Shown one piece after another: positions 2,940 to 47,001 of a stretch of 64,000 nt of DNA. Under the pieces are notes generated by a model. It made no database searches. It was not told the origin of the DNA and saw nothing but the letters and a program-made list of their open reading frames with translations. This DNA is from Paralichthys olivaceus (Eukaryota; Chordata; Actinopteri; Pleuronectiformes; Paralichthyidae): NCBI RefSeq assembly GCF_024713975.1, contig NC_091096.1:18535458-18599457 (forward strand), given 5' to 3'. Position 1 is the stretch's first letter. Each line of letters opens with the position of its first letter. Position numbers and translations under genes: made by a program.

Positions 2940-3240
2940 CTTAAAGTCAAACACACACATACACACATACGTTACAATTACATTCACATACATTAAATTC
3001 ATGGAGACTAGTCTCACATGAATTATATTTATGACCTAACCCTAACTCATACCTTAACCTAACCCATATCAAACTGTAAAGCATGTCTTCACCTTAAATT
3101 GTAATTATTTTTATTTTGGGGACTTGCCCTTAGTCCCCATAAAGAAGTCAAATCCCCATAATATGACTATGTAAGCACATTTAGGTAATACCTGGACCAC
3201 ACCTGAGTAATACCTGGACCACACACCCACATATTTTAGG
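2940..3240. repeat. Decayed teleost repeat with internal direct duplication
   Basis: It contains 'cctaaccctaac' and 'taacctaaccc' words, then GTCCCCATAAAGAAGTC followed by 'aaatccccataatatgac', as in a common teleost repeat. Near 3184-3225 the phrase 'taatacctggaccacac' occurs twice in tandem, a small local duplication. No coding content is evident. Confidence 0.4.
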
Positions 3241-4309: not shown

Positions 4310-4535
4310 TGTATGTGTGTGAGAGAGAGGGAGGGTGTGTGTGTGTGAGAGAGAGAGAGTGAGAGGGTGTATGTGTGTTTGTGAGAGAGAGAAATAGTGT
4401 GTGTGTGTGTATGGGGGTGCAAGGATTATTTCTGTGAATCTGGAACAGCCTGTCTGTAGTTACTAGGCAGATATTGGCCCACCCGACACACACGCACACA
4501 CACAGACACACAGACACACAGACACACACGTGCAG
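4310..4535. repeat. GT/GA and CA microsatellite cluster
   Basis: Alternating (GT)n, (GA)n and (CA)n runs fill this stretch, with purine tracts on the left and CA tracts on the right. The long open frames across it translate into repetitive Cys-Val or Thr-His peptides and are not genes. Confidence 0.8.
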
Positions 4536-6929: not shown

Positions 6930-7070
6930 AATACAGTGACCATCCCTTAACATGGAGGAGGTGGAATTAATGTCCTAAACTGCAGCCAGCCACCGGGGGG
7001 GCGATTGAGACGCTTTGGCTTCACTTTTGGGGGGCTGTCATGTCTTCTATCTTTATCATCTATGAACTTC
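6930..7070 (+). repeat. Interspersed repeat, 'gcagccagccacc' type, copy 1
   Basis: The stretch reads through 'ctgcagccagccaccgg', 'gcgattgagacg', 'tggcttcacttttgggg' and 'tgtcatgtcttctatcttta'. The same ordered words recur at about 30,925-31,030, and the terminal word 'tacagtctatgg' is found alone near 41,315-41,330. This is a dispersed element common in percomorph genomes; I cannot name its family with confidence. Confidence 0.65.
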
Positions 7071-8840: not shown

Positions 8841-8869
8841 CACACACACACACACACACACACGCTGGC

Positions 8870-8901
<32 letters not shown>
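8841..8901. repeat. (CA)n microsatellite
   Basis: An interrupted CA dinucleotide tract about 60 bp long, split by 'gctggcacacg'. It lies about 90 bp upstream of the tmc1 start codon, so it is probably in or next to the tmc1 5' untranslated exon. Confidence 0.9.
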
Positions 8902-8990
8902 TGTAAAGATGCAGCAGGTAGAAGACCACCTCATATGCCCACTGGATGCTGGAATGACTGTTGTAGGAGACACAGCACCATGAGAGGAAG

Positions 8991-17396
<8,406 letters not shown>

Positions 17397-17788
17397 GCTG
17401 TGAAAACAGCATGGCAGTGACAGAGACAGAAAACAAAGCACTTTACTGACAATTGGTGTTCAACTGCAAACAGTGAACTGAGAGGAATGAGACTTGAAAT
17501 ATTAATTTTTGTGAAAGGATCTATTCACAATTTAAAGAGACATGAGTGTTTAGATGAGATTAATTTAACTTTTTCCTCAAATGTTGCACAATGGTTCTTA
17601 TGTCTGTCAGTGTTGTTTGAAAACACTAATCAGTAGTGAATTAAAACTGCAGTATTATTTTGAAATATGTAAAATGCATGTCTTTAAGCTACATTGGTCA
17701 AATGTGGGTGTGCTCTCCATTGTCACAGAAAATACAGAGATCAGTCCTGCTTGATTTAATCAGAGCAGCTCAATACAACAAAGCTATT

Positions 17789-18121
17789 ATTACCTCTGCC
17801 AAGGAGGTTATGTTGTTGTCTGCATTTGTTTGTTTATCAACAGCATTATGGGGAAACTCCGGGACAGAAATTAAAAATTAAAGGTTTGGTGCTGATATGG
17901 ATCAGAGGGCAGATCTAGGAATTAAAAACTAAAAAAACTAAAAAACATTTCTGTTGATTTCTCAGAGACTAATTGAACGATCCAGGGGAGTGATATTTAC
18001 GAGTGTGTCGAATTTGGTGTGGATCCAAATAAAATCTGGATCTGGTGAATTTAAATGTGGTTTCACAAGGGGACAGTCGGGCCTAGGCGCAGTGATGAAC
18101 TCTACCGAGTGACATTCTAGT
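17789..18121 (+). repeat. Interspersed repeat, 'cctctgccaaggaggttatg' family, copy 1
   Basis: It begins with 'cctctgccaaggaggtta' and ends 'gagtgacattctag', with the internal words 'gatctaggaatt', 'gatttctcagag' and 'gtgtggatccaaataaaa'. This is the most complete of at least four copies in the window (others near 46,197-46,500, 53,665-53,840 in reverse and 55,450-55,640). The family is widespread in fish; its class is not evident from the sequence. Confidence 0.75.
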
Positions 18122-20729: not shown

Positions 20730-23584
20730 AGATGGTGAGAATTTATGTATTTATTTCAGCTTTAAATATTTACCTTAGTGCCTGATAATGATTTGGAAAA
20801 AATATTTTTTGAAATTGGGTTTTTATGTTTTTGTTCACATGTTCCAGTTGGGATGGAGGTTGATGCTGTGTCAGACAATGGAAGTGAAGGTGAGATTTGT
20901 AAAACATTTAACACAATGTGATGGTGCAAATTACTGCTGGGTTTAGTTCCTATGTCTTTTCTTCAAACCATTTGCATAATTTTCCCTATTATGATAGCTG
21001 AACTAAATGACTTTAGTATATTTTTACAACCCTTTCTAAATATTCTTTGTACTTATTATACAATAGAAATTTAGTATAAATGGTATTATCAGTGGGTAAA
21101 AGCTTCTGCCATTTGTGCACAAATGCAAACTGTGTATTTGTGTCTCAGATGAGGCCCGAAAGAGAAGTAAAAACAGAAGAGTCAAGCCACAACGTAGAGC
21201 CAAACAGGTCAGTGATGATGAGGATGACGAGGAGGATGAGGATGAGGATGAGGCACCACGGAAAAAAGGACGAAAGAAGAAGGCCAAGCCCAGAGACAGC
21301 GACGAAGATGACGAGGAAGACAACCGCAGTGTGAAAAGAAAAGGATCAAAGGCCTCCAGGAGGAGAGCTGCTAAGGAGGAGAGTGACGAGGAGAGTGAAG
21401 ATGACAGACAGAAGAAAAAAAAGGGAGGAAGAGCGGTGACCAAAAAGGATAAAGAGGAGCAGAATAAGGGGAAGAAGGGGAATGTTAAAAAGAAAGAAGG
21501 GAAGGATAAAGATGGTGAGAAGGACAAGAAAAAGAAGAATGGGAAGTTGAACAGGTGCAGTATTCTCTGAGAGCTGCCTCTCACATACCTGCACGCTCCT
21601 CACACCTGTATTTACAGGCTTTCTCCACGCACCCATCCACATGCCTGACAGACTCTGCTTACATGAAGCTTATGTATGTGCCATTTAATAAGGAATAATG
21701 AATAATGAAATACTGTTAACTACATCAATATACAGAATACACAGTTCTTTCCCTGAATATATGATTTTTACAATATAACTGGTTGATTTTTTTTAAAGTA
21801 CTGTAAAACTTCTTAGAGCTCAGGTGTCTATCAATTTATTTTTCAGTCATTTATATATCAATAGAGCATTAAGTTTATTATTCTTCATGTCAGTATGAAA
21901 TGATTATGTCATCATCCAAAACATATGAAAGTCAGTTATGGTGGAAATATTTAGGTGGTGAAGATTTTAGGCTGTAATCCTCATCCATTACTTACTGCTG
22001 CCTTGAAACTAAAGCAATGGGACAAAACATTGGCTGCACTTTGAATGGTGGCAAACTACCAGTTCTGACTATACAGTGAAGATTTGAACATAACTCACAG
22101 GACAATATGCATCACAATTATTGATATAATAATGTAATTTGGGTAAAACATTTTGGGTAAAACATTTAGAAATGCCCCTGTGGCAGACAGCAGAATACAT
22201 GCTGCCATTGCGGAAATTGGATAAACTAATTGTTTAAAACCTTTAATACGTTTTTGTTGAGGCCACTCTGGGGCAGTGGAAAAAAGCAGTAAAGACAACA
22301 ATCACTTTACATGCACACCATTTTTCTGATACTAACCCGATTAAGACAATAGTCTGGATAAGACGCTGCAATGAAAACAGCATTTTCTGATCAACTTACC
22401 AAAAATAAGATCATAATTGGAATAAGTAATAACCGAATTAAAACATGTGGAGCACTCTGACCCAAGAGACATTATGTAGACATGTATCTAAACACCACAA
22501 TCAAAATCTCTTATTCTGAATTAGATCAATAGTTGGAACATTAGTGCCATTTTGAATTCTGTTTTTGTTCTCTACCACATCCTGAGGGAAATATCCAGCC
22601 TCTTATCTGCTAAATGCACGACTTCACTCACTAGACGTTAATTGTGTGGTCCAGATTTTAGTTTCTATAATTTTGTACAGTTGTTCTCATACAGATAAGT
22701 TGTGATTCTGATGCAGTGCCTCGTCAAAGTGACAGCTCTCTCCCTTCAGCAGCTCCTCTTCTTCCTCTGATTCCGATGATGAATCGCTCTCGGAGGGAGA
22801 GATGGCAGCCCTGAAGGAACAGGTGGAGGAGAAGAAAAAACTGATCGCCACATTAAGGAACAAACCGTGGCGCATGAAGAGGAGGCTCGTACTGCTCAAG
22901 TAAAAACAAATATAAAAACAGAGGCCAACTGTGACTCACACGCTTGTGATAACTGTAATTTCTGGTTGTTGTTGTTGCACCTGCATTTTGTTCTTATTTT
23001 ATTTTGGTGTTCTTCTTGTTTCTGATTCATTTGTTTCCACCTTTCTCAGTGTCTACCATCACTCATGTCATGTACATGTGATGTTGATCATTATTAAAAC
23101 TTTGATTCATTGACTTTAGGTGTTTGATACTTCTCATTGTCAGTGCTTGTTTTTTTTAATTTTTTTATCAGAGATGTTTAAGAGAGAGGTCAGAGAAGGT
23201 TTCTCACGACCCTGGTTTGTCGTAACACAACTCAATAGTTTGAGGAAACTAGCTACAGGCAGTGAGCATGGTGGAGGGGACATGGCCTGATTAATCACAG
23301 TATCTCAGATGAACCTAATTCTGCACAGAAATAACTCATCAGACTTTAAAATCCTAAAAGAACCTGAGAAAGTGATTAGATCCAGGCAGATATTTGACAG
23401 GTTTTAAATTTAAATGTCATGTTCTCTCCACTGTGAGATGCACAATACAAACATCTATCAATCTCAGGAAAACACACAGACGCACACATGACTGCCTGTG
23501 GTTCAGCCTGTTAGACACCTTCAGTGTGACAAGGCTCTGAACAGTTCAGGCCACCTTGCTCAGGTCAAGGAGTTGTAGCTCAGT

Positions 23585-23677
<93 letters not shown>

Positions 23678-26600
23678 GTGTATGTTTCTCTATGTAAGCA
23701 AGGTTCTGGGAAGGGAACCCGATAAGTGTGCTGCATTCGTTTTTTCATGAGCTTGACACTGTTTAGTGCATGCAGTGAGCCACTGAGTTGCCAAGTCTTT
23801 GTAGTGTATCATCAATCAGTGAATTACACTACACCCTTCTGTTTTAACATCCTGTTACCACAGACTAATGCATTCATTGGTTGAAGAAGTCATGGTTTTC
23901 TATGATGTCTTCTGATTGGTCACACAGGGAGGCCCAAGACTTTGTTGAAAAGTTTGAAGGTGCTCTTGGGAAAGGAAAAGGCCGGAAGCTGTATGCATAC
24001 AAAGTCATGATGACAAAGGTAATCTGTTCGTGTTATAACCTCGTTGACACCTAAAAATACAAAACTGCTAATTTCATTAATTTAAAATGTTGAAATAACC
24101 ATTTCAAACTTTAACCCCCCCCAGAAACTGATCAAGTTTAAACGTGACTTTGAAAACTTCAAAACAGCCTGTATACCCTGGGAGAGGAAAATAAAAGATG
24201 TAGAAAGTTGGTATCACAACAACTTTATCTGAAAAAGAATCACTGAGATATGATCTTACTCTTTCTACTAACCGTCCTTATAATTCTGAATCAAGTTCTC
24301 TGTCTAATCCTAGGTCACTTTGGGTCATCAGTGGCTTCCTACTTTATTTTCCTGAGGTGGATGTATGGTCTGAACTTGGTTCTCTTTGGGTTAATGTTTG
24401 GCCTGGTGGTGCTGCCTGAGGTACAAACGTTGTCAGAATACACACTAACAGATGATACCTGATGTAGCAGACATTGTACATGTTTCCTCATATACACCAC
24501 CCCCTCTCCTCTGTGTTTAGATCCTCATGGGTCTGCCCTATGGCTCCATTCCCAGGAAAACTGTGCCCCGAGAGGAGCAGCCCACAGCCATGGACTACTC
24601 TGTGCTCTTTGAATTTAGTGTGAGGATCTCAGCTCCATTTATCGGTTTATTTATCCTGCCTGACTCAACCTATGAAAACAAATCTAATTGATAGAAAAGA
24701 CAATGTATGAAAACTGCATTTTAAATACCTGGCGTGGGTAAAGTGATGGCAAATAGTCCCTCACTTTTGATCCAGGCTTAGTATCGCTGTAGTGCTGACA
24801 TAACTTTGTGGAGCCATTAGCCTGGTTTTAGCTTGGCTTTGTCTTCATCAAAATGTAATGTCACTATTGTGTTTCTTAACATTTTCTTAGTTTTGTTTAA
24901 CCAAATGGTAAAGTTGCTTTGTACCTGCTTGAACGACTGTGATGTGTATCTGTAAGAATGGATATTTCTTTACCTCATCAACAGGGATACTGCAAGTACT
25001 CCTTTTTGTTCTACGGATTCTACAACAGCGAGCGAACCATCGGAGTGCTGCAGTTCAGACTCCCTCTTTCCTACCTGCTTGTGGGTGTTGGCATCTTTGG
25101 ATACAGCCTGATGGTTGTCATTAGAACGTAGGCAAGATGAACACCAGCAAGAATTCAGATGTATAATGAATATACACAAATAGTTGATTTTTTTTGTTTG
25201 GTGTGTTTTGGTTTTCAGAATGGCTCGTAACTCAAATGAAGGAGGAGACGGGGCAGAGGAAGGAGAGTTCACCTTCAGCTGGAAGATGTTCACCAGCTGG
25301 GACTACCTGATAGGAAATCCTGAGACAGCAGACAATAAGTACGCCTCCATTACCACCAGCTTCAAGGTTAGCAGGTGTGTGTGTGTGTATTTGTGTTTGG
25401 AGGTTGATAATTTTTTGTCCATTGGTCTGTCCTGTTTTTGTGAACATAACACCTCATGAACACTTTGAGGGAATTTCTTCACATTTGGTACTTAAAATCT
25501 ATTACATTACTTACTCATCAAACTTTTTTTATTTTTATTATTTGTCGGCTAGGGAATTCAAGGCCAACACTAACCCATTTTTGCTCTATTTTTGGTCTCT
25601 ACCACATCCAATCACCAATTGTGTCATCCAGAATCTAGATTCCTCTATTTTGTATAGTATTGTATAGTATTCCTCTCATACAGATAAACTGAGTTTGTTT
25701 GAATTAGCTGATGTTGGTGTTGCTGCTGCAGTCTGATGTAGTGCCTTGTCAAAGTGACAGCTCTCTCCCTTCACACTTGAGTCCGTTTTATGAACGTTTT
25801 CTTAAAATTTGGCACAAACCTTCAACTTCACACACATACATTAGGTATATTGTGGGGATGTAGCTCAGTGGTAGAGCGCATGCTTCGCATGTATGAGGTC
25901 CTGGGTTCAATCCCCAGCATCTCCAGTCTTGTTAATGTGTCTGAGGTCAGCATGTGAGAAGAAACTGATATTGTTATCTTGATCAAATGTGAATGATGTC
26001 TCGCGGCTCAAGTGGTGTCCTATGGATGCACTGTATGAATGGGTTAATGACAAAAATAAAAGAGAAATGTAACATACTGTGAGTGATAATTCAACACTGG
26101 TTATATGCTATACAAATACAGACTTACTTATTTGAGCAGAATATATTAAAGTCTGCCTCTGGGGAATAAACCGATTAAGTGCAGTATTCATTTGAATATG
26201 AAATTATTTGAAACATGTCAAGTGCAAAATGATACACAAAACAGGTTTGAACCTTAATTTTATATATACATATTTATATTGTCCCTCCTGTAGGAATCCA
26301 TAGTGGATGAACAGGAGAACCAGAAAGACGAGAACATTCATCTGCGAAGGTTCCTCCGGGTTCTCGCAAACGTTATGATCCTGTGCTGCCTGGGAGGCAG
26401 TGGATACCTCATCTACTTTGTGGTGAAACGTTCTCAGGAGTTTGCTAATATGAAGACAGATAATCTCTCATGGCTTGAAAAGAACGAGGTAGCTTGACAC
26501 TAAACTTTGAAATTTGCTGGAAATGTGGCAGATCTGAGGCTTGATGATGAGATCGTGTCCCCTCCTCTCTTGTCCGATGTATCAGGTGGAGTTTGTGATG

Positions 26601-29600
26601 TCTCTACTGGGGCTGGTGTGTCCTCCTCTCTTTGAAACCATTGCAGAGTTGGAAGATTATCACCCTCGTATCGCTCTGAAGTGGCAGCTGGGTCGAATCT
26701 TTGCCCTCTTCCTGGGAAACCTTTACACCTTCCTCTTTGCCCTGTTTGATGAGGTCAATGCCAAGGTATGACCTGTGATCATAGGGTATTTATATGAAAT
26801 TGGCCTGATATTGCCCATCTAAATTGGACGCTGTCTCACTTAAAATGAATTATTGTAAATTACAATTTAAGATTTTATAATCTGCATTTCTGACCTATTT
26901 TAAAATAATGCATTGACCCACAGTTATGTTGGGACAGCTATACAGCTGAGACATTGCCTAAATCTAAAGGAGACATATGCATTTTAATTTCTCCCTATCC
27001 TCTGTTGTGTTATATAGATTTTCTTGTTTGTAAAAAAGTAAATATTTTCCAGTTATAACCCTACTTCAAATTATAAACCTGAATATGAGCAGAAGATGGT
27101 TCCTTTCAATTGTGAGGTATTTGACAATATGGTTATTTGTTTGCTGGTGGTAAGCAAGAGAGAAGATTGATAATACTTATTTATTGGCTTTATATGTAAA
27201 GCTACAGTCACTAGCAGGTTACCAAAGGAAACAGGGACCAGTGTGGCTTTGTCTGAAAGTAGCAAGTTTCCTGTGTATGAGCAAATGAGTTAGCCGACTG
27301 TAGCTGTATTTAACAGACAGATATATAAACCATATTGATCTCATCTAACTCTCATCTGGAAAGTGATTAGAACTTCTCAATGCCCAACCATGCTGTACAT
27401 AGTGTATTTGTTCAACATAAATAAGGTTTGCATGGCCTTGATTTTGTTGTTGATATATTTTCTGTTCTTTAGTTGGAGAGTGAGAAGTTAATCAAGAATG
27501 AGACTGAATGGCTTTTGAATCAGTACTATGCAAACTACAGCCTCCACTTCAACACGACAGACGTGCCTCCTCCGACTGTGGACCCAGCCGACGTCATCAG
27601 AGGACCCTGCTGGGAGACTGGAGTGGGAATAGTGAGTAACGGTAGAGTATAGAACTGCTGTCCAATGAGGGTGCAGACCTTTGCTTGATTTGCAGCATCA
27701 TATCTCTACCTTACCCTCCTCAAACAGATGCCAAATTGATCTTATTTCTTTGCTTCTTTATCTGTGTAGGAATTTGTGAAGCTGATTGTGTCAGACATGC
27801 AAGTGACCTATATCACGATCCTGATTGGTGACTTCGTTCGAGCCGTTGTTGTGCGCTTCCTCAACTACTGCTGGTGCTGGGACCTGGAGGCTGGATTTGT
27901 GAGTACTTGTCAGTGTGTGTCAATAGATCACGTTGTCTCCTTGAGTATTACCTAAGCCAGGCATAATAAAGGAAATAAGAAAGATATTTCTTCCTTTGTG
28001 CATAAAGTGGAAATGTTGATCAATTCAAACTCAATCAAAAGGAAGAATTGTTTGCATTTGAGAATAGAAAAGAAGAAATGTCAAGCGACTGTGATTCCTC
28101 CTTCTTAACAGACCGTTGTCGGCTACACTCTCTTTAAATACCTAAAACTGATCACCACACTGTGTTTGTGTGCTAACGCAGACAGAATATCCTTGTTACT
28201 AAAACCAGTTCTTAAGCACAGCATCACCAATTCATCTACACAAGGCATCCAAGCCTTGCGTACCTACAGTTTTACAGCTGAAGTGTTTGTATTTGTTTTT
28301 ATCATCGTTGTACTACGACCACGTCATTCAACTATAGCTGAACACTCACACTACAGCGCAGCTTGTATTGGTTTCAAGTCAACCTGATACCATACAATGA
28401 CATCTGGCAGGACAGGTGATCCCTAACATGGAGCGAAAGAAGACACTGCATTGAGAAGTTAATTACAGAGAGAGAGAAATGCAAAGTGTATCAACTTGGC
28501 TTTACCATCATGTCTTTGTGTTTACACCAGCCTTCATATGGAGAGTTCGACATCAGTGGAAATGTCCTTGGACTTGTTTTCAATCAAGGAATGATTTGGT
28601 GAATCACTCTTTATTTTATGTCTCTTATAAATATGTCTACACTTCTGCTCTAAAGGCAGGGATTCTCAAATGGGTGACTCTAAGCTGCCCTCTAATGAAA
28701 AATGCTCATGTTTCTTGTTGCCTGCCTCCACTTTGTATATAATTATCAGAATATAAAGTAAAATCAAAAACATTAGATCACTAAATAGACAAGTCAGTAT
28801 ATTCATATACAGTATACTATGATTAGCTGAACACTGGCTGATGATTCTGTATTTTTGACTGGTTTTCCTCAGGATGGGGGCGTTCTATGCTCCAGGTCTA
28901 GTGGGTCTGAACGTGTTGCGTCTGCTTACCTCGATGTACTACCAGTGCTGGGCCGTGATGTCCTGTAACGTTCCTCACGAGCGAGTTTTCAAGGCCTCGC
29001 GCTCCAACAACTTCTACATGGGCCTGCTGCTGCTCGTGCTGTTCCTCAGTCTGCTGCCAGTCGTCTACACTATCATGACCCTGCCCCCTTCCTTCGACTG
29101 TGGACCGTTCAGGTCAGTATCACTGACAAAGGTAGTGACCATTGATGATGAAATTTGATTTAATATCTCAATTAGAATAGAATGATAGTTCACGGTGAGT
29201 TCTTCTTCAAGTATTTTATTGTCTACCTGAAAAGTTTTAGAACATCTAAAGTGAATTCATACAAATTTACTGGTGGTCTAGGCTCCTGAGTATTTGACAC
29301 TAAACCACTCTGAGAAAACAAACATTTGGTTTCAAGAATCAATAAAGAAAGTTTTCATCTGCTGCCATTTATGCTCAAATATAATAACAACATCTTGTCT
29401 TACATATGTACTTTAGTGGACTGTTTTTTTCATCCAGTGATTTTATGCAACAACGTACTGTTTTTGACTCTTTCCTCCAGTGGTCAGGAGAAGATGTATG
29501 ACGTGGTCATGGAGACGATAGAACAGGATCTACCCGCCTTCATAGGGAACATTTTTACGTACGCCACCAACCCTGGACTCATCATGCCTGCTGTCCTCCT

Positions 29601-30543
29601 CATGGTGTATGTATCATTTGTACAGGGGGTGAAATACTGTGCTATGTCTGTAAGAAAAGTAAATAGGGGATGAAATGCCAGTCCATGTACTGTAGAGGAA
29701 GGGAAATGTATCAAGGCATTACATGATAGCCTCTGAAATTCAGCTGTCAAAATGTCCCTGAGAATGTACAGGTTTTTTTCACATTGTTTGTATTTTTTTA
29801 GTTTTACATTTATAATTCTGTTAACTGACTTCACACATTTAGACACACACATTTAGAAACTGATAATCTTTGAAAATAAGATGCTGACTGGTTTACAATG
29901 GCTTTCACCTAAAAGAATGTTGTGTAATTCTATCACAGATTGGCTCTCTACTACCTGAACGCAGTATCAAAAGGATACCAACAAGCCAACAATGACCTTA
30001 AAAGGAAGATGCAAATGGTCAGTCCCCTCTGTTTCTCGATTTTTTCCAAATTTCCTTTGAGGAAGATTCAGTAAAAAACCGTCTGCTTTATGGACGGACA
30101 CTTTAGGCTCGAGACGAGGAGAAGAACCGCAGGAACAACAAGGACAGCACTAATCAAGTGATGAAGGACCTGGAGGACTTGCTGCCGGACAAGTCTCTCA
30201 TACCGCCTTCAGTCGAGGAGGAGCCACCCCCACCTGGTACTCTCACACACTCACACATTCCTTCATTGCACATGCTATCAGCCAGTTTGCACCTGACTAT
30301 ACTCGCCACTGTTTTTGTTCTCAATCTGTCTTCTCAGAAGTCGTAATTGAGAAGGGAGGCAAGTCTCCTAAAACGAAGCCAGGTGCAGCAGGGAAAGGGG
30401 TAAATCTGCAAAAAGAAGTGTCACTGGCTGCCCCCAACCCCAGAGGGCCAGTGACCCGTGCACCAGGGCCGAGAGGGGGGCCCCCTGGAAATGCCAGGGG
30501 GCCTCACCCAGGCAGAGGGAGGGGTCGGGGTGGGCCAAGGTAA
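20689..30543 (+). CDS. tmc2: Transmembrane channel-like protein 2 (TMC2), 20 coding exons, 941 aa
   Basis: TMC2 is the paralogous hair-cell mechanotransduction channel subunit; a/b ohnolog status is unresolved. Exons: 20689-20734, 20848-20889, 21149-21554, 22750-22899, 23928-24018, 24125-24206, 24314-24420, 24521-24619, 24985-25127, 25219-25366, 26294-26488, 26586-26765, 27473-27631, 27770-27898, 28531-28598, 28873-29112, 29481-29606, 29939-30017, 30107-30236, 30338-30543, all in phase. TMC2 identity is shown by [27 protein letters not shown] and [17 protein letters not shown]. The N-terminal 200 residues alternate acidic and basic runs plus a Ser stretch; the TMC region spans about 273-830, with CWETGVGIE and IGDFVRA. 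Residue 513 is Leu (SLLGLVCP), where tmc1 has the Beethoven Met. The last about 45 residues are Pro/Gly/Arg-rich with RGG-like repeats. Fourteen consecutive exons match tmc1 in size or nearly so. Confidence 0.93.
22559..22748 (+). repeat. Dispersed repeat ending exactly at a tmc2 splice acceptor (copy A)
   Basis: This stretch shares 'ctctaccacatcc', 'ctcatacagataa' and a near-identical 34-bp block (22,715-22,748, AGTGCC...CCCTTCA) with 25,588-25,773 in a later tmc2 intron. Copy A ends at the acceptor of tmc2 coding exon 4 (cttcag|C), so its pyrimidine tract serves as the 3' splice site. Confidence 0.6.
23591..23675. repeat. (GT)n microsatellite in a tmc2 intron
   Basis: An almost pure GT dinucleotide tract of about 85 bp, the longest in the window, lying in the intron between exons 22750-22899 and 23928-24018. 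Confidence 0.95.
25432..25840 (+). repeat. Composite dispersed-repeat region in tmc2 intron 10
   Basis: The left part has 'gaacactttgagggaatttc' and 'ttcacatttggtac', and the right part 'ttaaaatttggcacaaacct'; both are hallmark words of a common teleost repeat. Between them, 25,588-25,773 is copy B of the repeat that also abuts tmc2 exon 4. The region therefore looks like nested or adjacent insertions. It contains no coding signal and precedes a tRNA gene. Confidence 0.6.
25854..25925 (+). tRNA. tRNA-Ala (anticodon CGC)
   Basis: The 72 nt fold as a full cloverleaf: acceptor arm GGGGATG/CATCTCC (one G-U), D-arm TAGCTCAGTGGTAGAGC, anticodon stem CATGC/GTATG with loop TTCGCAT (anticodon CGC), T-arm CTGGG/CCCAG with TTCAATC, and discriminator A. 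Internal A and B boxes are intact. It closely matches vertebrate tRNA-Ala as remembered. It lies alone in a tmc2 intron on the same strand, and no run of four T follows within about 40 bp, so it may be a tRNA pseudogene or retrocopy or be poorly transcribed. No SINE body is evident downstream. Confidence 0.85.
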
Positions 30544-31479: not shown

Positions 31480-34400
31480 TTACGAGTTCTTCTGTGAGAT
31501 TTTGATGGTGACTGCCTTGACCTCTGTGTACTCCTGAAGAGCATATTCTCCCCTACAATAAAACAAACAAATGATTACATTGAGTTGTCATGACGTTTCC
31601 TCACATTACATGAGCAACATCTACCAGTCAAGTTGTAAAGTCACATGTAGCAAAGAACCGACCTACTACATGTGGTGGACATACTGTAAATACAGTGAGA
31701 ATAAAGGGCTACTGCATGACAGATTAAACAGGGGTGACACTCACAGTTCCCTCCCATTGCCAGACATTTTGAAGCCACCAAACGGACACTGAGCACTCAT
31801 GGCATTGTAGCAGTTCACCCTGGAAAAAAAGGCAACATTAGACTGACACTCATTTACCAAATGTATTCATTATTATGTACTAATATCATAAGTAATATTA
31901 CAAAGTGTAATAAAACTTGAAGGAAAGTGTCTGTGATGATTTGCTGTGCAGATCCTACAGATCAGCTAAAAGCTGAACTGTAGAGATTCGATCCGTACCA
32001 GACCACGCCAGCCTGCAGCGCAGAAGAGACTGTCAGGGCTTTGTCGATGTCGTTGGTGAACACGCCTGCTGCCAGGCCGTAGTGTGTGCTGTTGGCTCTC
32101 TGGATGACTTCATGGATGCTACGGAAACACATGATCTGCTGCACTGGACCAAAAATCTGGATAAGAGTGTAAGAATTTCAGAGCACAGCGTTAAAATGAG
32201 GATGCAAATAATGTGGGTGCTTGTCATGTGCACCATGAATCATGGTTGCATATGTGCAGACGTGCATTAAAGCAGGGTACCTCTTCTTTGGCAATGCGCA
32301 TATCATCTGTGACATCTGAGAAGATGGTGGGTTGGATAAAAAGTCCCTGCTGACCCCACGCGGATCCCCCACATTCCAGTGTGGCTCCCTCCCTCTTGCC
32401 GCTCTCTATCAGCTCCATTATCTTATCAAACTGCTTCTGGTCAATCTGCAGAAAACAGGATCAGTATTAGACAAGAGTTTTACTTCCTGACCAGCGAAAC
32501 AACATCAGTTCTCACATAAATACGGTCCCTGTGTACCTGTGGCCCGTGATCCACCCCTGGCAGCAGGGGGTTTCCCAGGATTTTGGATGTGGCCCTCTCG
32601 ACGCTGCGACGGACAAACTCCTCGTAGATCGGTTCCTCTACAAACACCCTGGATCCAGCCAGACAGCACTGGCCCTGGTTGAAGAACAGACCACTGTGGG
32701 CCTGCTCCACTGCGTACTCCACTGCAAGACAGACATGTTCACACTCAAGTCTGAACGGCTGTAGGTATATTGTTGCCATGAAGTAAGAAAGGTTGAACAG
32801 TATCATCAGTGTTTATTTGTGTGTATTTTATGTTCATGTTGACAACCTGCATATGAGTAATTTCAAAGAATCTAGCTCTCTTTAACAGTGCAGAGAAAAA
32901 GGCAACCCCTTCAATAGTGTTCAGTATGTTAATGCTGTAGCACATACTGAAGGTACAGCAAGATAACTACATTTTAAAAAAACTACCGTAAACTTAACAA
33001 GTATAAATACTCACAGTCACAGTCTGCAAAGACAATATTTGGATTTTTGCCGCCGAGTTCCAGTGTAACTCTCTTCAGATTGCTGTCGCCTGCAGCCTTC
33101 TGAATGAGTTTCCCAACCTAGCAGCCAAGATACACAGTTACTCCTCTACACAGGAGAGGAGAGGAGAGGAGAGGAGAGGAGAGGAGAGGAGAGGAGAGGA
33201 GAGGAGAGGAGAGGAGAGGAGAGGAGAGGAGAGGAGAGGAGAGCAGAGGAACTGTTTCTCGTGTCAGTAGAATACTTACAGCGGTAGATCCAGTGAAGGC
33301 GACTTTGTCTATGTCCATGTGATGAGAAATGGCACAGCCGGCTGTCTGACCGTAGCCCGGCACCACATTAACCACACCTGGAGGAAACCCGACCTGAACC
33401 CGGAGAATTGGAGGGAGCGATATAACAAACAGGCACCACACATGCACATGATCAGCTCATAATCTCAGAGCAGCTACGCAGGTCTCAACAATGTCTAAGT
33501 GAAAGTTTATAGCCGTTGTTAACATGTTCTTTGCTCTTACAAACAGTAATAATCCCAGTACCTCTTTTATGAGTGCAGCCATGTGCAGGGCTGATAATGG
33601 GGTCTGTTCAGCAGGTTTGATGACAACAGTGTTCCCACAGCACAGAGCAGGAGCAATCTTCCATGCAAACATCATCAGTGGGAAGTTCCACTGTCGTCCA
33701 ATTTGCACACACATGTTCAGATGCAACAACATAAAGAGTTTCAATGAGTATAATTGATTTTAAGAAGCATTCAAATACAGGAGGATGTGGCATTAGCCAG
33801 ACTCCGACAACAGCTACACTGATGTCAGGTAAAACAAGTTCAAACATATTGCCAGACTCAATATTCTATGCTGTAAAATTGTGTACAGATTACATTATTG
33901 TGTTGCATTGTTTGTAAGTGCTGTACAGATAAATACAATACACAAATACATATACAAATGTGAAACTTGATGAATATAGTTTAATGCCTAAGACTAAATA
34001 TTCTTAACGGAATGTAAATATTTCAATGCTTTGCCTAAACTACATTCTTAAAGTGCTGCATATGACAGAATTGTTCTTTCTACTCACAGGAATGATCTGG
34101 CCACACACTCCAATGGGCTCATGTCGAGTGTAAGTAAAGTACTCTCCATCTAAAATATATATATGTGTATGGTTAACTCACTTTGAATAAACTGTGACAT
34201 AAATGTCAGAATTGTTAAACATGGCTGTATACAGTATATAGAGAGTAGTAGTCAGAGTAGTTGATAAGTAAGTAAAGATACAAGATACAATATACAAACA
34301 ATTAAATATTAAAAATTAATGTATACGATGTAAATAGAATACATATATGTAACAGTATTACACACACACTGAAAATATCTGTCTATAATCTTTATCTATA

Positions 34401-37068
34401 ATTTAAACGACAACAACTCACCTACTGGGATGGTTTTGCCATGAACCTTGTCGGCCCAGCCTCCATAATATCTCAAAGTTTTGATTGTTGCCATCAGATC
34501 TACAAAATACGCCATGAGAAAAACTTTGCCGGAGTCCAGAGCCTCCAGGGTCTACAAACACAAAACACAAGAATCAATTAAAAAAGGAAGCCATTGTTTC
34601 ATTGTATTGGTCTTTATTTTTTAAATCCAAATTGTATATATATGTTTGTGTGTGTGTGTGGGTGTGTCTGTGTGTTTCTCACTGCCAGTAGAAGCCGATC
34701 TCTCTCCACTAAGTCAGCAAGTCTATTAAGTAGATGACCTCGGTCTGAGGCGTCCATGGATCGCCATGGTGACCCCATCTGGAAGGCGGCTCGGGCGCTC
34801 CTCACCGCCTTGTCAACATCTTCCTAAAAGAGATTCAGTTTGAGTCAAGTCAAGTCTGTTTCTGGGCTCTAAAGCCCAAAATCCCAAATGACAAATCCAA
34901 CAATTTGTGAAGCATAAAGCCTCTATCTTTAGAAACTGAATACGGATAAGGAAAAAACTCCCCATAAATGTATAATAAACAGGAAGAGTAACAGAGTAGG
35001 GATCCCTCCTGCAGGACAGAACACTCTACAGACACATTTGTACAAAAGGCAATGAACTGAGATAAGAATCACTTCTAATTGAACTGGTGATACTTACTGC
35101 ATCAGCCTCCTCCACGTCACACAGCAGCTCTCCTGTGGCGGGATTATACACAGGAATCTTTTTCCCGCTGCATGACTCATGCCACTCGTTGTTGATGAAC
35201 AACTGAGACACCAGAGGAGAATCAGAAAGAAATAACACACGCAGAAACAAATGATCAAGTTCCTTTTTCTTCCTCCTTTAAGTGGGGTCTCCCCGTCTTG
35301 TTGTCTCGGAGCAGATCAAAGTGGTTAACACACAGTGAAGTATATCAGCTCCTCTGATAAAACTAATAACAGGCTCGCTGGATTTAGAGGGAGGTGTTCT
35401 CCCTGATCTTTATTATGTGGTGCATCTGCATGCTGTAAATCATGTAGAGTATATTCAGGAAGCAGCTTTCATCAGTAAACCTACTGATAAAGGGCCAATA
35501 AAAAAAGTTTCCCTTAGTCATCTTGTTAAATCCACATTTCCATTCTCCTCTAATTACAAACAGACACAGCATATTTATTGTTTTCATTTTGGAAACAAAC
35601 CAAATATAGTCAAATACTACACATCACTGTATTAAAGGGCAACTGAACCTCTGCATTATTCAGGCAAGAGGTGGAGAAATCGGGTGAAGGAAGTGATGTA
35701 TTAACTTCACAGCTGAGATCATGTGATTTTCTTAAAAATACCCAGACACCAGGTAAAATATTTTTTCAATCAAAACTTGACATCTGAATGTAAAAGACCC
35801 ACAAAGATCTGGCTGCAGTGGATGTGTCTGTGCACAGTGCTAATAATAATAGCTGGGAAAGATGAATCCACCATTTACTTACAGTGGTTGATTTACATAT
35901 CCTTGTAAGATTATACGTGTGCTGCTTTAGCTCGTTTATCTTACCTTAGTGTGTTGAATTGTGGGCTCTGGGACTGGCATGGGCAGGGCCTGCATCTCAG
36001 GTCTGTCTACGCTCTGCGGACTGTGATTCTGGTTTGGAACCTGGTGGTTGCACCCGTTGCCAGACTGCTGCTGGTGGTCGTTGTCAGGCTGGGAGTTCAT
36101 GTTTGCATGTTTTCCCTCTGAAAAACAGACACAAATGGAAGCCTGTGTCCAAAACCGAGCGTGTTTGTGTGCGTGCGTGTGTGCTTTCCAATGTACTGTA
36201 ACGCATGTTGGTGTGACCCCTTGATTGTGAAAGTTAATCTTGTTATCTTGTTCACTGGGTGAGAATAGTTCCTTTCGTGTTGGCACAAGATGCCCTACCA
36301 ACCCAGTGGAGTAACAGAGCCTGTGCCAAATTAGGTACTGGCATTGTCGGCAGGGTAACACCACAAGGGTCAGGGGTTACGACTGGCACCATAAAGTCGG
36401 GCTGGCTCTGAGCGGTGGACTGGACTGACCTCATTTGGACGAAGGGGATCAGAGAACAGCAGGATGCTGCTGAATACTACAGAGGTGTGCTTCATCAAAT
36501 CCCCCCCCCCAAAAAACAAAGCTGTGATCAGAAATTAAGAATATTTCACCTGTCCTATTGTTTCCCCTCAATTTATATTTTCAATTTATGAAGCACAACA
36601 ACTGTGTTTTTAACAGGTGCTATATACATTTATTTAAATTTAAGTTTATAATTATTACCATTACTTTTATTAGTAGTATTACATACACAGACACTCAAAA
36701 CTACATTTAATCCATGCACACAGACAGAAAGAAAACAATGTATTGCCCCTTATCAAAGTTTTTTTGTGTCTCATCTTCTGTATTGATTAGTATTGAATAC
36801 AAACAAATATTGGACTTAGATTTGCCTTGTTAAGGAGATTAAACACATAATTGGAGAAGAAGTATCAAGATTTAGTAGAATCAGTAAATCTTAACTTTAA
36901 CCATCATTAATGAAGTAGCTTGTTGATCTTATCATAAGATGAACTGGGCCACAGTCGTTCACTGTAAAACACGAGAGGTTGCAAGAGTCTGTGTGAGGAG
37001 TCGTTACCTGTGGGAGAAGCTGATGAGGAGGCTCCAGCCTGGTAGATCCCCGCTCCGGTCACCGGCAT
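31480..37068 (-). CDS. aldh1a1: Retinaldehyde dehydrogenase, ALDH1A1-like, 13 coding exons, 557 aa
   Basis: Cytosolic NAD-dependent oxidation of retinaldehyde to retinoic acid. Exons in order: 37068-37008, 36117-35945, 35202-35098, 34823-34683, 34551-34422, 34149-34088, 33690-33562, 33393-33280, 33117-33015, 32721-32537, 32445-32281, 32156-31999, 31819-31745, 31552-31480. The first of these holds the ATG, so the coding sequence is in 14 pieces if it is counted separately from the 13 canonical ones. Internal sizes (105, 141, 130, 62, 129, 114, 103, 185, 165, 158 bp) match the vertebrate ALDH1A layout as remembered. Catalytic Glu 325 (LELGGK) and Cys 359 (GQCC) are present. ALDH1A1-type words are ILGNPL, GPVQQIM, SSALQAG and SAQCPF. 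The N-terminus is about 56 residues longer than human ALDH1A1. GSTAVG replaces the usual GSTEVG. Converges with tmc2. Confidence 0.88.
33153..33243. repeat. (GGAGA)n minisatellite filling an aldh1a intron
   Basis: About 18 tandem copies of a GAGGA pentamer occupy more than half of a 162-bp aldh1a intron (33,118-33,279). On the transcribed strand this is a continuous CTCTC pyrimidine tract. Such repeats are usually length-polymorphic. Confidence 0.95.
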
Positions 37069-37114: not shown

Positions 37115-37200
37115 TCGTCTTTATAAGAAGAGGAGGAGACCGCATCATCCTTCACGTCTTTATAAGAGGAGGAGGAGGAGGAGGCAGTATCATCCATCAC
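37115..37200 (-). promoter_or_regulatory. aldh1a promoter with tandemly duplicated TATA module
   Basis: On the minus strand two TATAAA boxes lie at 37,125-37,120 and 37,164-37,159. Each is embedded in a repeated unit (37,115-37,155 and 37,154-37,200) of the form 'cgtctttataaga' plus a GGA-rich run plus 'atcatcc.tca' as read on plus. The proximal box is about 55 bp upstream of the ATG at 37,068, predicting a transcription start near 37,090 and a 5' untranslated region of about 25 nt. The region is CpG-rich. Confidence 0.6.
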
Positions 37201-37659
37201 CCCCCCCCGTCTGATCACCGTTCACACTGAACCAATCCCACTTCACCCCACGTGTCCCCCCGCGAGGCAGACACCGCGCAGAAGACGTGTCGGTTAAAGC
37301 AGCGTGGCGTTCGGTGTGAGTTACACATTTGAAATATTATTAAAAAACATGTGAGCAATGATCAGGTCTCAGCTCATTTTACTGTGGTGGAGTTTAACCA
37401 TCAGCAATTAGTTAAACTTGAGTCTTTCCATTAAATGCAACTTTAAAGCATACTGATCCTCACACTGTTTATATCACAGATAGACCTGCTGGTTACTTTG
37501 CTGATTGTGATTCTGCAAACAAATTACAAATACAATTTAATAAGGTGCATTCCAGTGGTGGATCCAGGATTTTTTTAATTGAGTTGCTCCAGTTTTAACA
37601 AAGGGGCAAATTATATGTCCAACATCCATGCACAAGTCCTAATTCAGTAAGGTGCACAT

Positions 37660-37903
37660 TTAAAGGGATAGTTCACTGCAGTAACTGCAGCAGTAAGCAG
37701 TAGTGATGACACCACAGGAGCAGTATAGAAGCATTTTATGTTTTTTTTTACGTTTTAAGATGTGGTCGCCACTTATTTCAATTGGATTTGGTCGCAATTC
37801 TGTTTACCCCTGAAACTCCAAAGCTGTTTGGTGGACTCAAACACGCCATAGTGGTGAGGAGATAATGAGTGGATTTTCATATTTGGGTGAACTATCCCTT
37901 TAA
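37660..37903. mobile_element. Non-autonomous DNA transposon (MITE) with TTAA target duplication
   Basis: A 244-bp element whose ends are perfect inverted repeats: TTAAAGGGATAGTTCAC at the left and GTGAACTATCCCTTTAA at the right, with TTAA at both outer ends as expected for a TTAA target-site duplication. The interior has no coding capacity. 'AGGGATAGTTCAC' ends are familiar from abundant fish MITEs; TTAA targets are used by piggyBac-like and Kolobok-like transposases, and I cannot decide between them. Confidence 0.85.
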
Positions 37904-42439: not shown

Positions 42440-42654
42440 GTGAGTTTTATTACAAAATTGATTCCCATATTTCTCTCTTTCTACCTTTGTCTATTTGTTT
42501 GGTTTTCATCCTTCTTTCCATTGCATACTTTTTACTTTTTGTAGAAAGATTCTCTCTACATTTTCAAACTAATTGAATGTTGGTCTCTTTTCTCTCTGAA
42601 ACATAACTTTTCACTTCCTTTCTATGTCTCAGTATTTGCAGTTTACCAAGCAAG

Positions 42655-45600
42655 ATGAAACTGACGTTTGGGACTCTGCCCATCAAAGAGAACCCATGCA
42701 CTTCTATGTCTAGTGTCACTGTCGGTCTGTGTCTTCTCACCTTCCTCCTGATGGCCCTCAGGGGCCGAAAGAACTACCAACACACCTCCCAGGGGGACCA
42801 CACTAAATATCCTCCTCTTCCTGGCCCCACACCGTGGCCCCTTGTCGGTAACCTGCTCCAGATGGGGGACCAGATTCATCTTTCTCTAACACATCTGAGG
42901 CTCCGCTACGGTGATGTTTTCAAGGTATATGAAATTAAATGTGTGAAACATTTAAGATGGTCTAATGATGAGGTATTTGCTCATTCTATCATGTGATCAT
43001 TCCTGTACCTCAGATGCATCTGGGCTCTTTGACTGTTGTGGTCCTGAGTGGATACTCCACCATCAGACAGGCACTGGTCCGACAGGGGGATGCTTTTGCA
43101 GGGCGGCCTGACCTTTTCACCTTTTCTGCTGTGGCCAACGGGACCAGTATGACCTTCAGTGAGAAGTACGGACCGGCCTGGATGCTCCATAAGAAGCTAT
43201 GCAAAAATGCCCTCAGGTCTTTCTCCCAGGCTGAGCCCAGGGGATCTGGTGCCACCTGCCTGCTGGAGGAGCATGTCTGTGCTGAGGCTGCTGAGATGGT
43301 GGAGGTGATTCGGGAGCAGGTTGCTGCTAAAAGGGAAATGGGCCAAGATGTGATGGGCATAGATCCAGTGATACCCTTGGTAACCTCAGTGGCAAATGTT
43401 GTATGTGCCCTCTGTTTTGGGAAAAGGTATGACTACAATGATAAGGAGTTTCTCACTATTGTCCACATCAACAACGAGGTCCTGAGGATCTTTGCAGCAG
43501 GGAACCTGGCTGATTTTTTCCCTGTGTTTCGTTACTTTCCGAGTCCATCTCTGAGGAAGATGGTGCAGCACATCCACAGGATGAATGGATTCATGGAGAG
43601 GAGCATTGAGGAGCACATCAACACCTTTGATAGGGTAAGGAGGCCAGTAGATTCACTGGTAGACCGGAATTTATATCAGTTAAGTGGGAGGACAATGCAA
43701 AAGAAAAGCATAATTACATGCAGCTACAGCAAAAATGAAATCACTATTGTTTTGCAGTCTATTTCTTGAAGAACAAAATCATCTTCTCAGTGTTTCAGGA
43801 CCTGAGTACATCACATATTTTAAATCTAATGTATGACTGTTGGGCACTATACAGAAAAATACATGAGCAAAGCCGAAATTTAAAGTTTTGAAGGACACAC
43901 AACAGAAAATTTATATTTCAAAGAAAAGTACAAACATATCTCATTAGTATCATGACATCACCATAATGAGTGGTGGTTTGGATGGTTTATATCTTGACTC
44001 TTGTCAATCTATTGCAAGGTGATCACAAAATACAAACATTATATATTAAGGACGGTCCCTTGTGGTGGATCACGTAACACAAAGTGTCATTTTCTATAGA
44101 TCTGTCGCACTAATTTGCTGTCCATTATTCATCTGACATTGCACTCATGCAGTAGTAGTTGTGAGTGCGACTGTAGCCAAAAAATAACAAACAAGTTCCC
44201 TGGGAGGGACCTTTGTTCTTGTGCAGAGTGGATAAAATGTTCGCACACACTCTAATTAGGAATTGGCAACCCAGTGGAAGACACGCGTCGTACCATAACT
44301 GATTATACTGTCTCTTCTCTAATTATTGCTTTTAAATTTTGAACCACCATTTCAACACAATCACAAATCACCCTGTTGTTGACAAATATAGCTTAATGCT
44401 TAGGTGATGATGATGTCATCGGGGACTTAAGAAAGTCGAATGTTATAGTTCCTGTCATATTGTGTATGTGTGTGAATGTGTGTGTGATTGCAGAACTGTA
44501 TCCGGGATATTACAGACGCTCTGATTGCACTTTGTGAGGACAGGGAGGAAAATAAGGAAACGTCTGTGCTCTCCAACTCTCAGATCATTCACACGGTCGT
44601 AGACATCTTTGGAGCAGGTTAGAAACAACACATTCTTGGATGACCAATAATGATAATGACTTGGAACTGATCATACTGATCGAAACCATTGATCTCTTTT
44701 CATTGCAGTCGTGTTCTTTGTTATTTTCTGAAGGATTTGACACCATCATTGCTGGTTTACAGTGGAGCCTGTTGTACCTCGTCAAGTTTCCTGACGTCCA
44801 GGACAGAATCCAGCAGGAGATAGGTACTGTCTTGTGTTTTAATATTATAATATAACATTATTTTTACATAACTAATGAGAAAATATTGTGGCTGTAGTTT
44901 ATCGGTGATAGAAAACTAGTAGACATGTGAAAATGCATCTCTTTCTAAATAGTGTATGATCACAGGAGGAGCCAGGCACAGAAGTCTAGTATGAAGTGTC
45001 AGACATCAGAATTTTAGGCAAAATCACATTCAAAAAAACCCAACAATGTGCAGACCCCGGTGCCCTCCCCGCACAGACAAAATCTGACAGCCACGAGAGA
45101 AACCCACAAAAGATCAATCCAATTTGCTGATGCCAGAGCTACTTTTGAAGTCTGCTGACAGAAGTGCTGCTGTCTTCTGTTCCGAGGCACGTTGCATTTT
45201 TCACAGAGGGGAGGTGGGATGGGTTGGAGGGGGGGCACACTTAGAGAAGACACTGGCTGAATCAGGAAAAGAGGGAGAGAGAGAGAGAGAGAAGGGGGGC
45301 ATGAACAGACAGAGAAAGACAGACAGAAAGGTCAGAGAGTTGATCCAGACCGACACAAAGACGGTAACACGCAAGGCATTGAACACATATGTAGATTAAC
45401 ACTCTTCACCTACTGTACGCATCACTTGAATCAGGGTTAAATTAATACAGTGAATTGACTGAGAAGCTTTTCATTCCATTCTGTAAAGCAGGTTCTCCAC
45501 TTTAATGGAAACCTATTAGTGAACGAGCACGAGCAATTGATTTGAAAGACGAGCATATGTGCGAAAAGTTAGAAACTCAAAGAAGACAAAACACCTTTCT

Positions 45601-47001
45601 GTTTGTGTTGAGCTGAGCTGCAGCTAAAGTCTACATACGAGAATTTGTGAGCCAATGAAACTTATGATCATGTGGTTTCATGAGATATAAAATAATTAGC
45701 TATAGAGTGATTTGATACCATTGCAGACTCCAGCTTCAATAAATCTGAACCTGCATCATAGCTGAGGGGTTGTAACGTGTCTAGTTTGTGTGGTAACTCA
45801 AAGAAATATATCTCCAAATGTATCATTGTTCATCCTTATCCATGCATATACATAAGATTACTCATTACAATGTATATTACTAGTTTAAAAAAGCACTCTG
45901 TCTTGCAGTGAAATATTTAATTGCGATGTTTCATTGCTCAACATTCACCTACAGTGCTCAACAATGCCTCAGAAACATATTGTTTGAAAGTTTGTGCAAA
46001 CACTCGCCAGATCCTTACATTTGGAACTTTGGTGTGTTTATTCTCTTGCAGATGACCACATAGGAGCAGCCAGACTGCCCAGGTTTTCAGATAAGACCAA
46101 GATGCCTTTCACGGAGGCGTTCATATATGAAGTGTTTCGTCATGCTTCCTACATCCCTTTCACCATACCTCACTGGTAAGACTGTCTTGTGTACAGTAAA
46201 GGTCTATATATCTCTGAAGCATGTTATGTTTGTTATTTAGCAGGATTACACAAAACCTACTCTACTGGCTTCTGTAAAAGTTTGTGGAGGAAGGGAGGAC
46301 ATGTTCAGTTTTCATATGGGTCTAAATCAGGGGCAGATCCAGGAATGTTTTTCTTTAACATTATGAGATTTCCGTTGATTTCTCAGAGAATAATCACTGG
46401 ATCTTGAGTGTGTGCAATTTAGTGCGGATCCAAATAAAAATCAGGATCTAATGAATTTACGGCATCATCCTAAGGGATCTGATGAGTGCTGTTCTAATCA
46501 TTCAGGCTTTCCTCTCTTTTAGCACCACAAGAAACATCACCCTGAATGGATATTTCATTCCTAAAGACACATGTGTCTTCATCAATCAGTATCAAGTCAA
46601 TCATGATGTGTGAGTAGCCACAAGCATTCATCACTAATTGTGACTTTGGACAGTGTATAGTGTGAATTATAAGAATTGGTGCACATCATTGGTCTTCATG
46701 TTTTTCTCTCTGTCCCAGTGATCAATGGGGCGACCCAGACACATTTCGCCCTGAGCGATTCCTGGGTCCATCAGGACTCCTCAACAAGGAGCTCATGGAG
46801 AAGGTTCTCATCTTTGGCATGGGGAAGAGACGCTGTCTTGGAGATGGATTTGCACGCTTGGAGATGTTTGTGTTTCTCACCACGCTGCTCCACGGGCTGC
46901 GGATTGAAAATGTCCCCGGGCAGGAGCTAGACCTCAGCACTGACTTTGGTCTGACGATGAAACCGCGTCCATACAATATCACCATCTCCTCTAGGTTTTA
47001 G
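42655..47001 (+). CDS. cyp1d1: Cytochrome P450 family 1 subfamily D-like, 7 coding exons, 532 aa
   Basis: A microsomal haem-thiolate monooxygenase. Exons: 42655-42924, 43014-43634, 44494-44617, 44734-44823, 46052-46175, 46523-46609, 46719-47001, all in phase. Visible features: an N-terminal hydrophobic anchor (about residues 20-36), a [14 protein letters not shown] proline-rich hinge, [11 protein letters not shown] and LEEHV as in CYP1 enzymes, the I-helix AGFDT at 338-342, ExxR (EVFR) at 395-398, and the haem loop [10 protein letters not shown] with ligand Cys 478. The downstream exon sizes (124, 90, 124, 87 bp) follow CYP1A/CYP1D; CYP1B and CYP1C have fewer coding exons. The CYP1D call rests on that structure and on its position between aldh1a1 and anxa1, where human has CYP1D1P. 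An extra 89-bp phase-0 intron splits the usually undivided first coding exon after YGDVFK. Confidence 0.85.
46197..46500 (+). repeat. Interspersed repeat, 'cctctgccaaggagg' family, copy 2
   Basis: The internal words 'aggattacacaaaacctact', 'gggcagatccaggaatgttt', 'gatttctcagagaataatc' and 'gtgcggatccaaataaaaat' match the family represented at 17,789-18,121. The copy fills most of the cyp1d1 intron between exons 46052-46175 and 46523-46609. Confidence 0.75.

What the first reader, a model, noticed from the sequence alone, without database searches (positions are those of the whole stretch)
31480..37068. Intact aldh1a1-like gene in conserved 9q21 synteny in a fish
The gene sits between the TMC genes and a CYP1D/annexin pair, exactly the neighbourhood of human ALDH1A1. 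Several segments look ALDH1A1-like rather than ALDH1A2-like ([40 protein letters not shown]), though others ([22 protein letters not shown]) resemble ALDH1A2. Comparative work has concluded that teleosts secondarily lost aldh1a1. Catalytic Glu and Cys are present and the frame is open throughout, so if this species is a teleost the gene would be a surviving aldh1a1.
Basis: partly seen in the sequence, partly recalled or inferred. Interest (0 to 1): 0.72.

Follow-up and report, generated by a model that had tools for sequence, protein, structure and literature searches.

The report
Intact aldh1a1 gene in a fish
This fish genome carries a complete, intact-looking copy of aldh1a1, a vitamin-A-processing enzyme gene that published work says the teleost fishes lost; the fish looks like a teleost, but its species could not be named with the tools at hand.

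Summary
On the minus strand at 37068-31480 lies an intact 14-exon gene (558 codons, 13 GT-AG introns). Its 479-residue catalytic part aligns ungapped with mammalian ALDH1A proteins: 75.2-75.8% identity to ALDH1A1, 72.9-73.3% to ALDH1A2, 69.3% to ALDH1A3. The best tree joins it to ALDH1A1 (89/97). The ALDH1A2 placement is rejected under LG+G4 (p-AU 0.014), not under the mixture model (0.12). Neighbours are tmc1-like and tmc2-like genes and a CYP1-family p450, as in the published Aldh1a1 synteny group. So it is most likely aldh1a1, inferred to make retinoic acid from retinaldehyde. Teleost origin is likely (short introns; repeats recalled as percomorph-type) but unproven: 13 own-genome requests did not complete. 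Three later papers seen in passages repeat the teleost loss; Feng 2015 names a tilapia Aldh1a1 accession, so a teleost aldh1a1 is not wholly new in print. If the source is a teleost, loss in the stem teleost is wrong.

The parts
37120..37125 (-). TATAAA 52 bases before the ATG; a second copy at 37159 (candidate core promoter)
   Evidence: function inferred
37008..37068 (-). exon 1, ATG and first 20 codons
35945..36117 (-). exon 2, Gln/Asn-rich N-terminal extension, ends ...IQHTK just before the catalytic part
35098..35202 (-). exon 3, start of catalytic part (LFINNEW...)
34683..34823 (-). exon 4
34422..34551 (-). exon 5
34088..34149 (-). exon 6
33562..33690 (-). exon 7, holds Asn170 and Lys193; the ALDH1A2-like stretch
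33280..33393 (-). exon 8
33152..33250 (-). (AGGAG)n array of about 20 copies in intron 8
33015..33117 (-). exon 9, holds catalytic Glu269
32537..32721 (-). exon 10, holds catalytic Cys303 and [10 protein letters not shown]; strongest signal for ALDH1A1
32281..32445 (-). exon 11
31999..32156 (-). exon 12, holds Glu400 and Phe402, GPVQQIM
31745..31819 (-). exon 13, SAQCPF; Asn at the position of human Gly458
31480..31552 (-). exon 14, stop codon
31099..31104 (-). AATAAA, candidate polyadenylation signal
   Evidence: function inferred
10811..17400 (+). tmc1-like gene (approximate span, read by eye around tblastn hits)
   Evidence: compared with recalled human TMC1/TMC2
21100..30543 (+). tmc2-like gene (approximate span, read by eye around tblastn hits)
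   Evidence: compared with recalled human TMC1/TMC2
42607..47001 (+). CYP1-family p450 (approximate span from open frames), taken as cyp1d1 from its place

Best explanation
The gene is the orthologue of tetrapod ALDH1A1, kept in its ancestral place between tmc and cyp1d genes in a ray-finned fish that is most likely a percomorph teleost. It should code for a cytosolic, tetrameric, NAD-dependent aldehyde dehydrogenase: Cys303 attacks the aldehyde carbon, hydride passes to NAD held in a Rossmann fold, Glu269 activates the water that frees the acid, so that retinaldehyde becomes retinoic acid. Shown here: intact frame and splice sites, kept catalytic residues, best-tree and positional identity. 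Inferred from the family: fold, tetramer, substrate, cell compartment. Inferred from repeats and intron sizes: teleost origin.
For: Gene model intact. 479 catalytic residues align ungapped to human and sheep ALDH1A1 at 75.2% and 75.8%, above ALDH1A2 73.3% (human) and 72.9% (rat), ALDH1A3 69.3%, ALDH2 67.0%. ALDH1A1-type peculiar states at 11 of 35 sites, ALDH1A2-type at 5 of 39, ALDH1A3-type at 8 of 58. Tree: with ALDH1A1, 89/97; grouping with ALDH1A3 rejected (p-AU 0.013); among three fixed topologies LG+G4 rejects the ALDH1A2 (p-AU 0.014) and the basal (0.012) placement. Place: tmc1-like, tmc2-like, aldh1a, CYP1 p450, fitting 'Aldh1a1 synteny: Tmc1, Cyp1A/D, Anxa1'. Compact, percomorph-like genome: introns of median 192 bases, a CYP1 gene of about 4.4 kb against 14.7 kb from the zebrafish CYP1D1 coordinates; repeats at 18001 and 46406 and an element with inverted termini at 37657-37906 that I recall as common in percomorph DNA.
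Against: The tree has 7 rows, all others mammalian; the branch is not starred, and under the mixture model neither the ALDH1A2 placement (p-AU 0.12) nor a pairing with ALDH2 (0.11) is rejected. At human positions 227 and 249 the window has Gln and Ala where ALDH1A1, ALDH1A2, ALDH1A3 and ALDH2 have Pro and Glu. Zebrafish is itself a teleost, so a gene shorter than zebrafish's shows compactness, not teleost origin. The repeat argument rests on recall, and the repeat pair is a short two-copy family (34 bases, 88%), of a kind the tool warns may be chance. No transcript, no activity, no species name, no annexin found.
Confidence: 0.82

Rival explanations
1. A non-teleost ray-finned fish (gar, bowfin, bichir, sturgeon), where an aldh1a1 in this place is expected or known; then the finding is ordinary.
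For: Gar and reedfish were the ray-finned representatives in a published Aldh1a1 study (passages). No tool named the species.
Against: Introns of median 192 bases, and repeats I recall as percomorph-type; such compact genes are not expected (recalled) in those larger genomes.
Confidence: 0.08
2. A teleost aldh1a2 copy, or an aldh1a1/aldh1a2 mosaic made by gene conversion, that sits in this place.
For: [16 protein letters not shown] and VYNPATGE resemble ALDH1A2; 40 of 43 residues of exon 7 match ALDH1A2 against 35 for ALDH1A1. The mixture-model test does not reject the ALDH1A2 placement (p-AU 0.12).
Against: No exon favours the ALDH1A2 tree by more than 1.2 log units, and exon 7 itself favours ALDH1A1 by 0.44, so these are best read as states kept from the common ancestor; the place is that of ALDH1A1.
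Confidence: 0.05
3. A decaying or silent aldh1a1, intact by chance and on its way to loss.
For: Changes at two positions invariant in the compared set (Q227, A249); an unusual N-terminal extension.
Against: Whole frame open, 13 of 13 introns GT-AG, no gap in 479 residues, catalytic residues kept; 75% identity to mammals after some 430 million years (recalled date) needs lasting selection.
Confidence: 0.05

Closest known systems
Tetrapod ALDH1A1 (human, sheep; PDB 4wj9, 1bxs)
   Same: Catalytic residues, ungapped alignment, ILGNPLxPGV, GPVQQIM and SAQCPF strings, TMC and CYP1D neighbours (published)
   Different: 78 instead of 22 residues before the catalytic part, coded by two exons; Asn at human Gly458; Gln227, Ala249; gene of 5.6 kb
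ALDH1A2 / ALDH1A3 of mammals
   Same: 73% and 69% identity; same fold and reaction (known for the family)
   Different: Fewer shared peculiar states (5 of 39 and 8 of 58); other chromosomal place (published)
'Tilapia Aldh1a1' XP_003445644.1 named by Feng et al. 2015 (PMC4432375, passages)
   Same: A teleost protein called Aldh1a1
   Different: Its sequence could not be fetched, so identity with this locus was not tested
Aldh1a1 of non-teleost ray-finned fishes (gar, reedfish)
   Same: Ray-finned fish used for Aldh1a1 with the synteny genes Tmc1, Cyp1A/D, Anxa1 (PMC10879103, passages seen)
   Different: Non-teleosts; sequences and the figure were not at hand

Membership tests
ALDH superfamily, ALDH1/2 class | Catalytic Cys, general-base Glu, Asn170, Lys193, FNQGQCC and LELGG motifs | tested here: met
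ALDH1A1 orthologue | Groups with ALDH1A1 to the exclusion of ALDH1A2, ALDH1A3 and ALDH2 | tested here: inconclusive
   Best tree yes, 89/97; ALDH1A2 placement rejected under LG+G4, not under the mixture model (p-AU 0.12); no fish rows
ALDH1A1 orthologue | Shares residues peculiar to ALDH1A1 | tested here: met
   11 of 35, against 5 of 39 ALDH1A2-type and 8 of 58 ALDH1A3-type sites
ALDH1A1 orthologue | Lies next to TMC1 and CYP1D | tested here: met
   the gene labels rest in part on recalled human sequences
ALDH1A1 orthologue | ANXA1 on the far side | tested here: inconclusive
   not found in the parts searched; it may lie beyond 64000
ALDH1A1 orthologue | Oxidises retinaldehyde with NAD | not testable with these tools
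   needs expressed protein
Teleost gene | Source organism is a teleost | tested here: inconclusive
   own-genome search unanswered; intron sizes and repeats point that way

The most novel reading that the evidence does not exclude
A functional aldh1a1 survives in a percomorph teleost, so the accepted loss in the stem teleost did not happen; aldh1a1 was lost several times later, and this lineage still makes retinoic acid with an enzyme its relatives lack, one with a new Gln/Asn-rich N-terminal extension.
Probability: 0.78. Interest if true: 0.5.

Novelty: new member of a known kind. Interest (0 to 1): 0.42.

Why it matters
Fish models of retinoic acid signalling are read on the premise that teleosts work with aldh1a2 and at most aldh1a3. 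A surviving aldh1a1 would move the loss from the stem teleost to several later branches, give natural comparisons between close species with and without the gene, and warn that 'two-enzyme' models from zebrafish and medaka need not hold for all teleosts. The tilapia accession in Feng 2015 means that the correction may already lie unremarked in public annotation.

Tried and rejected
Own-genome search for the aldh1a2 and aldh1a3 partners and for a species hint: 13 requests, none answered. Phage, viral and bacterial collections as a source of fish DNA: no match in phages for 1661 bases of the gene; one viral contig with a 36-residue match of 61% (not used further); two scans with a repeat pattern found nothing (viral; bacterial and archaeal genomes). 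Rfam at gathering scores: only a tRNA. Annexin: looked for, not found. Gene conversion with aldh1a2: no support in per-exon likelihoods. 'Teleost-specific tandem tmc' as a mark of teleost origin: given up, since the two genes come out as tmc1-like and tmc2-like, an old split (98% in a four-row tree). The bacterial promoter and terminator scan of the upstream region found nothing and does not bear on a vertebrate gene. Structure prediction was not run. One paper search for tmc2a/tmc1/tandem gave no paper; a cobia paper fetched for cyp1d1 had nothing on this locus, and two papers held aldh1a1 only in their reference lists.
Full report
What is there. The minus strand of 37068-31480 holds one complete gene. 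I placed exon borders by hand on the peptide blocks and checked them by script: 14 exons, 13 introns, all with GT and AG, 558 codons with the stop printed after them as the last symbol of a 558-letter translation (557 residues and the stop). The introns are 890, 742, 274, 131, 272, 397, 168, 162, 293, 91, 124, 179 and 192 bases, median 192. TATAAA lies 52 bases (and again 91 bases) before the ATG, and AATAAA lies at 31099 beyond the stop.

What it codes for. From LFINNEW to the end the protein has 479 residues. Against the PDB its best matches are sheep ALDH1A1 (865 bits) and human ALDH1A1 (855), then human ALDH1A2 (845), rat ALDH1A2 (836), an ALDH1 listed as cytosolic 1 (1o9j, 830), ALDH1A3 (774) and mitochondrial ALDH (762). 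On the ungapped alignment identities are 360 (human) and 363 (sheep) of 479 for ALDH1A1, 351 (human) and 349 (rat) for ALDH1A2, 332 for ALDH1A3 and 321 for ALDH2. Of sites where ALDH1A1 has a state of its own the window has it at 11 of 35; for ALDH1A2 5 of 39; for ALDH1A3 8 of 58. Asn170, Lys193, Glu269, Cys302, Cys303, Glu400 and Phe402 are kept; Gln227, Ala249 and Asn458 differ from human ALDH1A1, the last being the ALDH1A2/ALDH1A3 state.

Tree. With seven rows (window, two ALDH1A1, two ALDH1A2, one ALDH1A3, one ALDH2) the window joins ALDH1A1, support 89/97, not starred. Holding it with ALDH1A3 is rejected (p-AU 0.013), as is a clade of the mammalian ALDH1A1 and ALDH1A2 without it (0.012); holding it with ALDH1A2 is not rejected under the mixture model (0.119), nor is pairing it with ALDH2 (0.112). 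Under LG+G4, among three fixed topologies, the ALDH1A2 placement (p-AU 0.014) and a placement outside both (0.012) are rejected. Per exon, the difference between the ALDH1A1 and ALDH1A2 trees is +8.75 in exon 10, +3.22 in exon 4, +2.88 in exon 12, +1.80 in exon 13, and never below -1.15 (exon 3). The ALDH1A2-like strings are thus best read as ancestral states, not as conversion. No fish row was available, which is the main weakness.

Neighbours. Two TMC genes lie on the + strand at about 10.8-17.4 and 21.1-30.5 kb. Against recalled human TMC1 and TMC2, 635 shared columns give a four-row tree with the second gene next to TMC2 at 98%. Identities of the second gene are 73.2% to TMC2 and 61.1% to TMC1; those of the first gene are 64.1% to TMC1 and 68.2% to TMC2, so the label tmc1-like rests on the tree, not on raw identity. 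A CYP1-family p450 lies on the + strand at 42.6-47.0 kb (the tested fragment matches CYP1A1 best in the PDB, then CYP1A2 and CYP1B1); it is called cyp1d1 from its place. No annexin was found in the parts searched. A kinesin motor follows on the minus strand at about 51.0-53.3 kb. In PMC10879103 (passages seen) the Aldh1a1 synteny group is Tmc1, Cyp1A/D, Anxa1, and PMC3229566 (passages seen) puts CYP1D1 in the region of TMC1, ALDH1A1 and annexin 1 in rhesus monkey, zebrafish, anole and frog.

Which fish. No tool named it. The own-genome search did not complete (13 calls). Short introns, a CYP1 gene of about 4.4 kb against 14.7 kb for zebrafish CYP1D1 (coordinates), an element with 20-base inverted termini at 37657-37906 (two matches against a shuffle mean of 0.16, 0 of 100 shuffles reaching two) and two copies of a repeat at 18001 and 46406 (34 bases, 88%; surroundings read by eye) fit a compact percomorph genome. 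That these repeats are common in percomorphs is my recollection; zebrafish being a teleost, the gene size shows compactness only. I put teleost origin at about 0.9.

What is in print. Canestro et al. 2009 (passages seen) had zebrafish, stickleback, medaka, Tetraodon and fugu in their tree, found Aldh1a1 absent from teleost genomes, described tandem tmc genes in its place between tmc1 and anxa1 in zebrafish, stickleback and medaka, and concluded loss in stem teleosts or earlier. Passages of PMC3769385 and PMC6365411 repeat this, and PMC10135820 lists only aldh1a2 and aldh1a3 for teleosts. Feng et al. 2015 (passages seen) used tilapia Aldh1a1 (XP_003445644.1) as outgroup and reported its very low gonadal expression; the passages seen do not discuss the supposed loss. 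A Lateolabrax transcriptome paper lists aldh1a1 as a hub gene by name only (passage). Ten paper searches showed in their listings, some of them capped (15 of 131, 15 of 19), no title or abstract start that argues for survival of aldh1a1 in teleosts. Only open-licence papers are held; I saw passages of 13 papers and read none whole. Holmes 2015, known to me from memory and from its citation, is as I recall it said to find ALDH1A1 absent in many, not all, bony fishes.

How it works. From the family: retinaldehyde enters the substrate tunnel, Cys303 forms the thiohemiacetal, hydride goes to NAD, Glu269 activates water, retinoic acid leaves. The residues for this are present; substrate, tetramer and cytosol are inferred. 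The Gln/Asn-rich N-terminal part of 78 residues is likely disordered (inference); a start at Met27 in exon 2 is also possible from the sequence.

Verdict. The gene is real, intact and most likely aldh1a1. Its importance depends on the species. If it is a teleost, the stem-teleost loss is wrong; but a teleost aldh1a1 had been named before, so the step is a correction, not a new kind of thing.

Noticed in passing
51640-51813 and 52660-52914, minus strand: A kinesin motor whose two tested fragments match 1sdm ('kinesin heavy chain-like protein', recalled as potato KCBP) and 3h4s (kinesin-like calmodulin-binding protein) best among PDB chains (72 and 51 bits for 1sdm; KIFC3 61 and 39): a KCBP-like kinesin in a fish, possibly of interest.
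   Followed up: partly
25853-25926, plus strand: A well-scoring tRNA-Ala (CGC) inside an intron of the tmc2-like gene.
   Followed up: no
37657-37906: A 250-base element with 20-base inverted termini (95% complementary) upstream of aldh1a1.
   Followed up: partly
18001-18034 and 46406-46439: Two diverged copies (88%) of what looks like one interspersed repeat.
   Followed up: partly
22707-22748 and 25732-25773: A 42-base stretch repeated at 95% identity at two places within the tmc2-like gene.
   Followed up: no
33152-33250: Nearly perfect (AGGAG)n array in intron 8 of aldh1a1, a likely length-variable marker.
   Followed up: no
1-9990: No Pfam match up to E=0.001 in any of six frames.
   Followed up: partly
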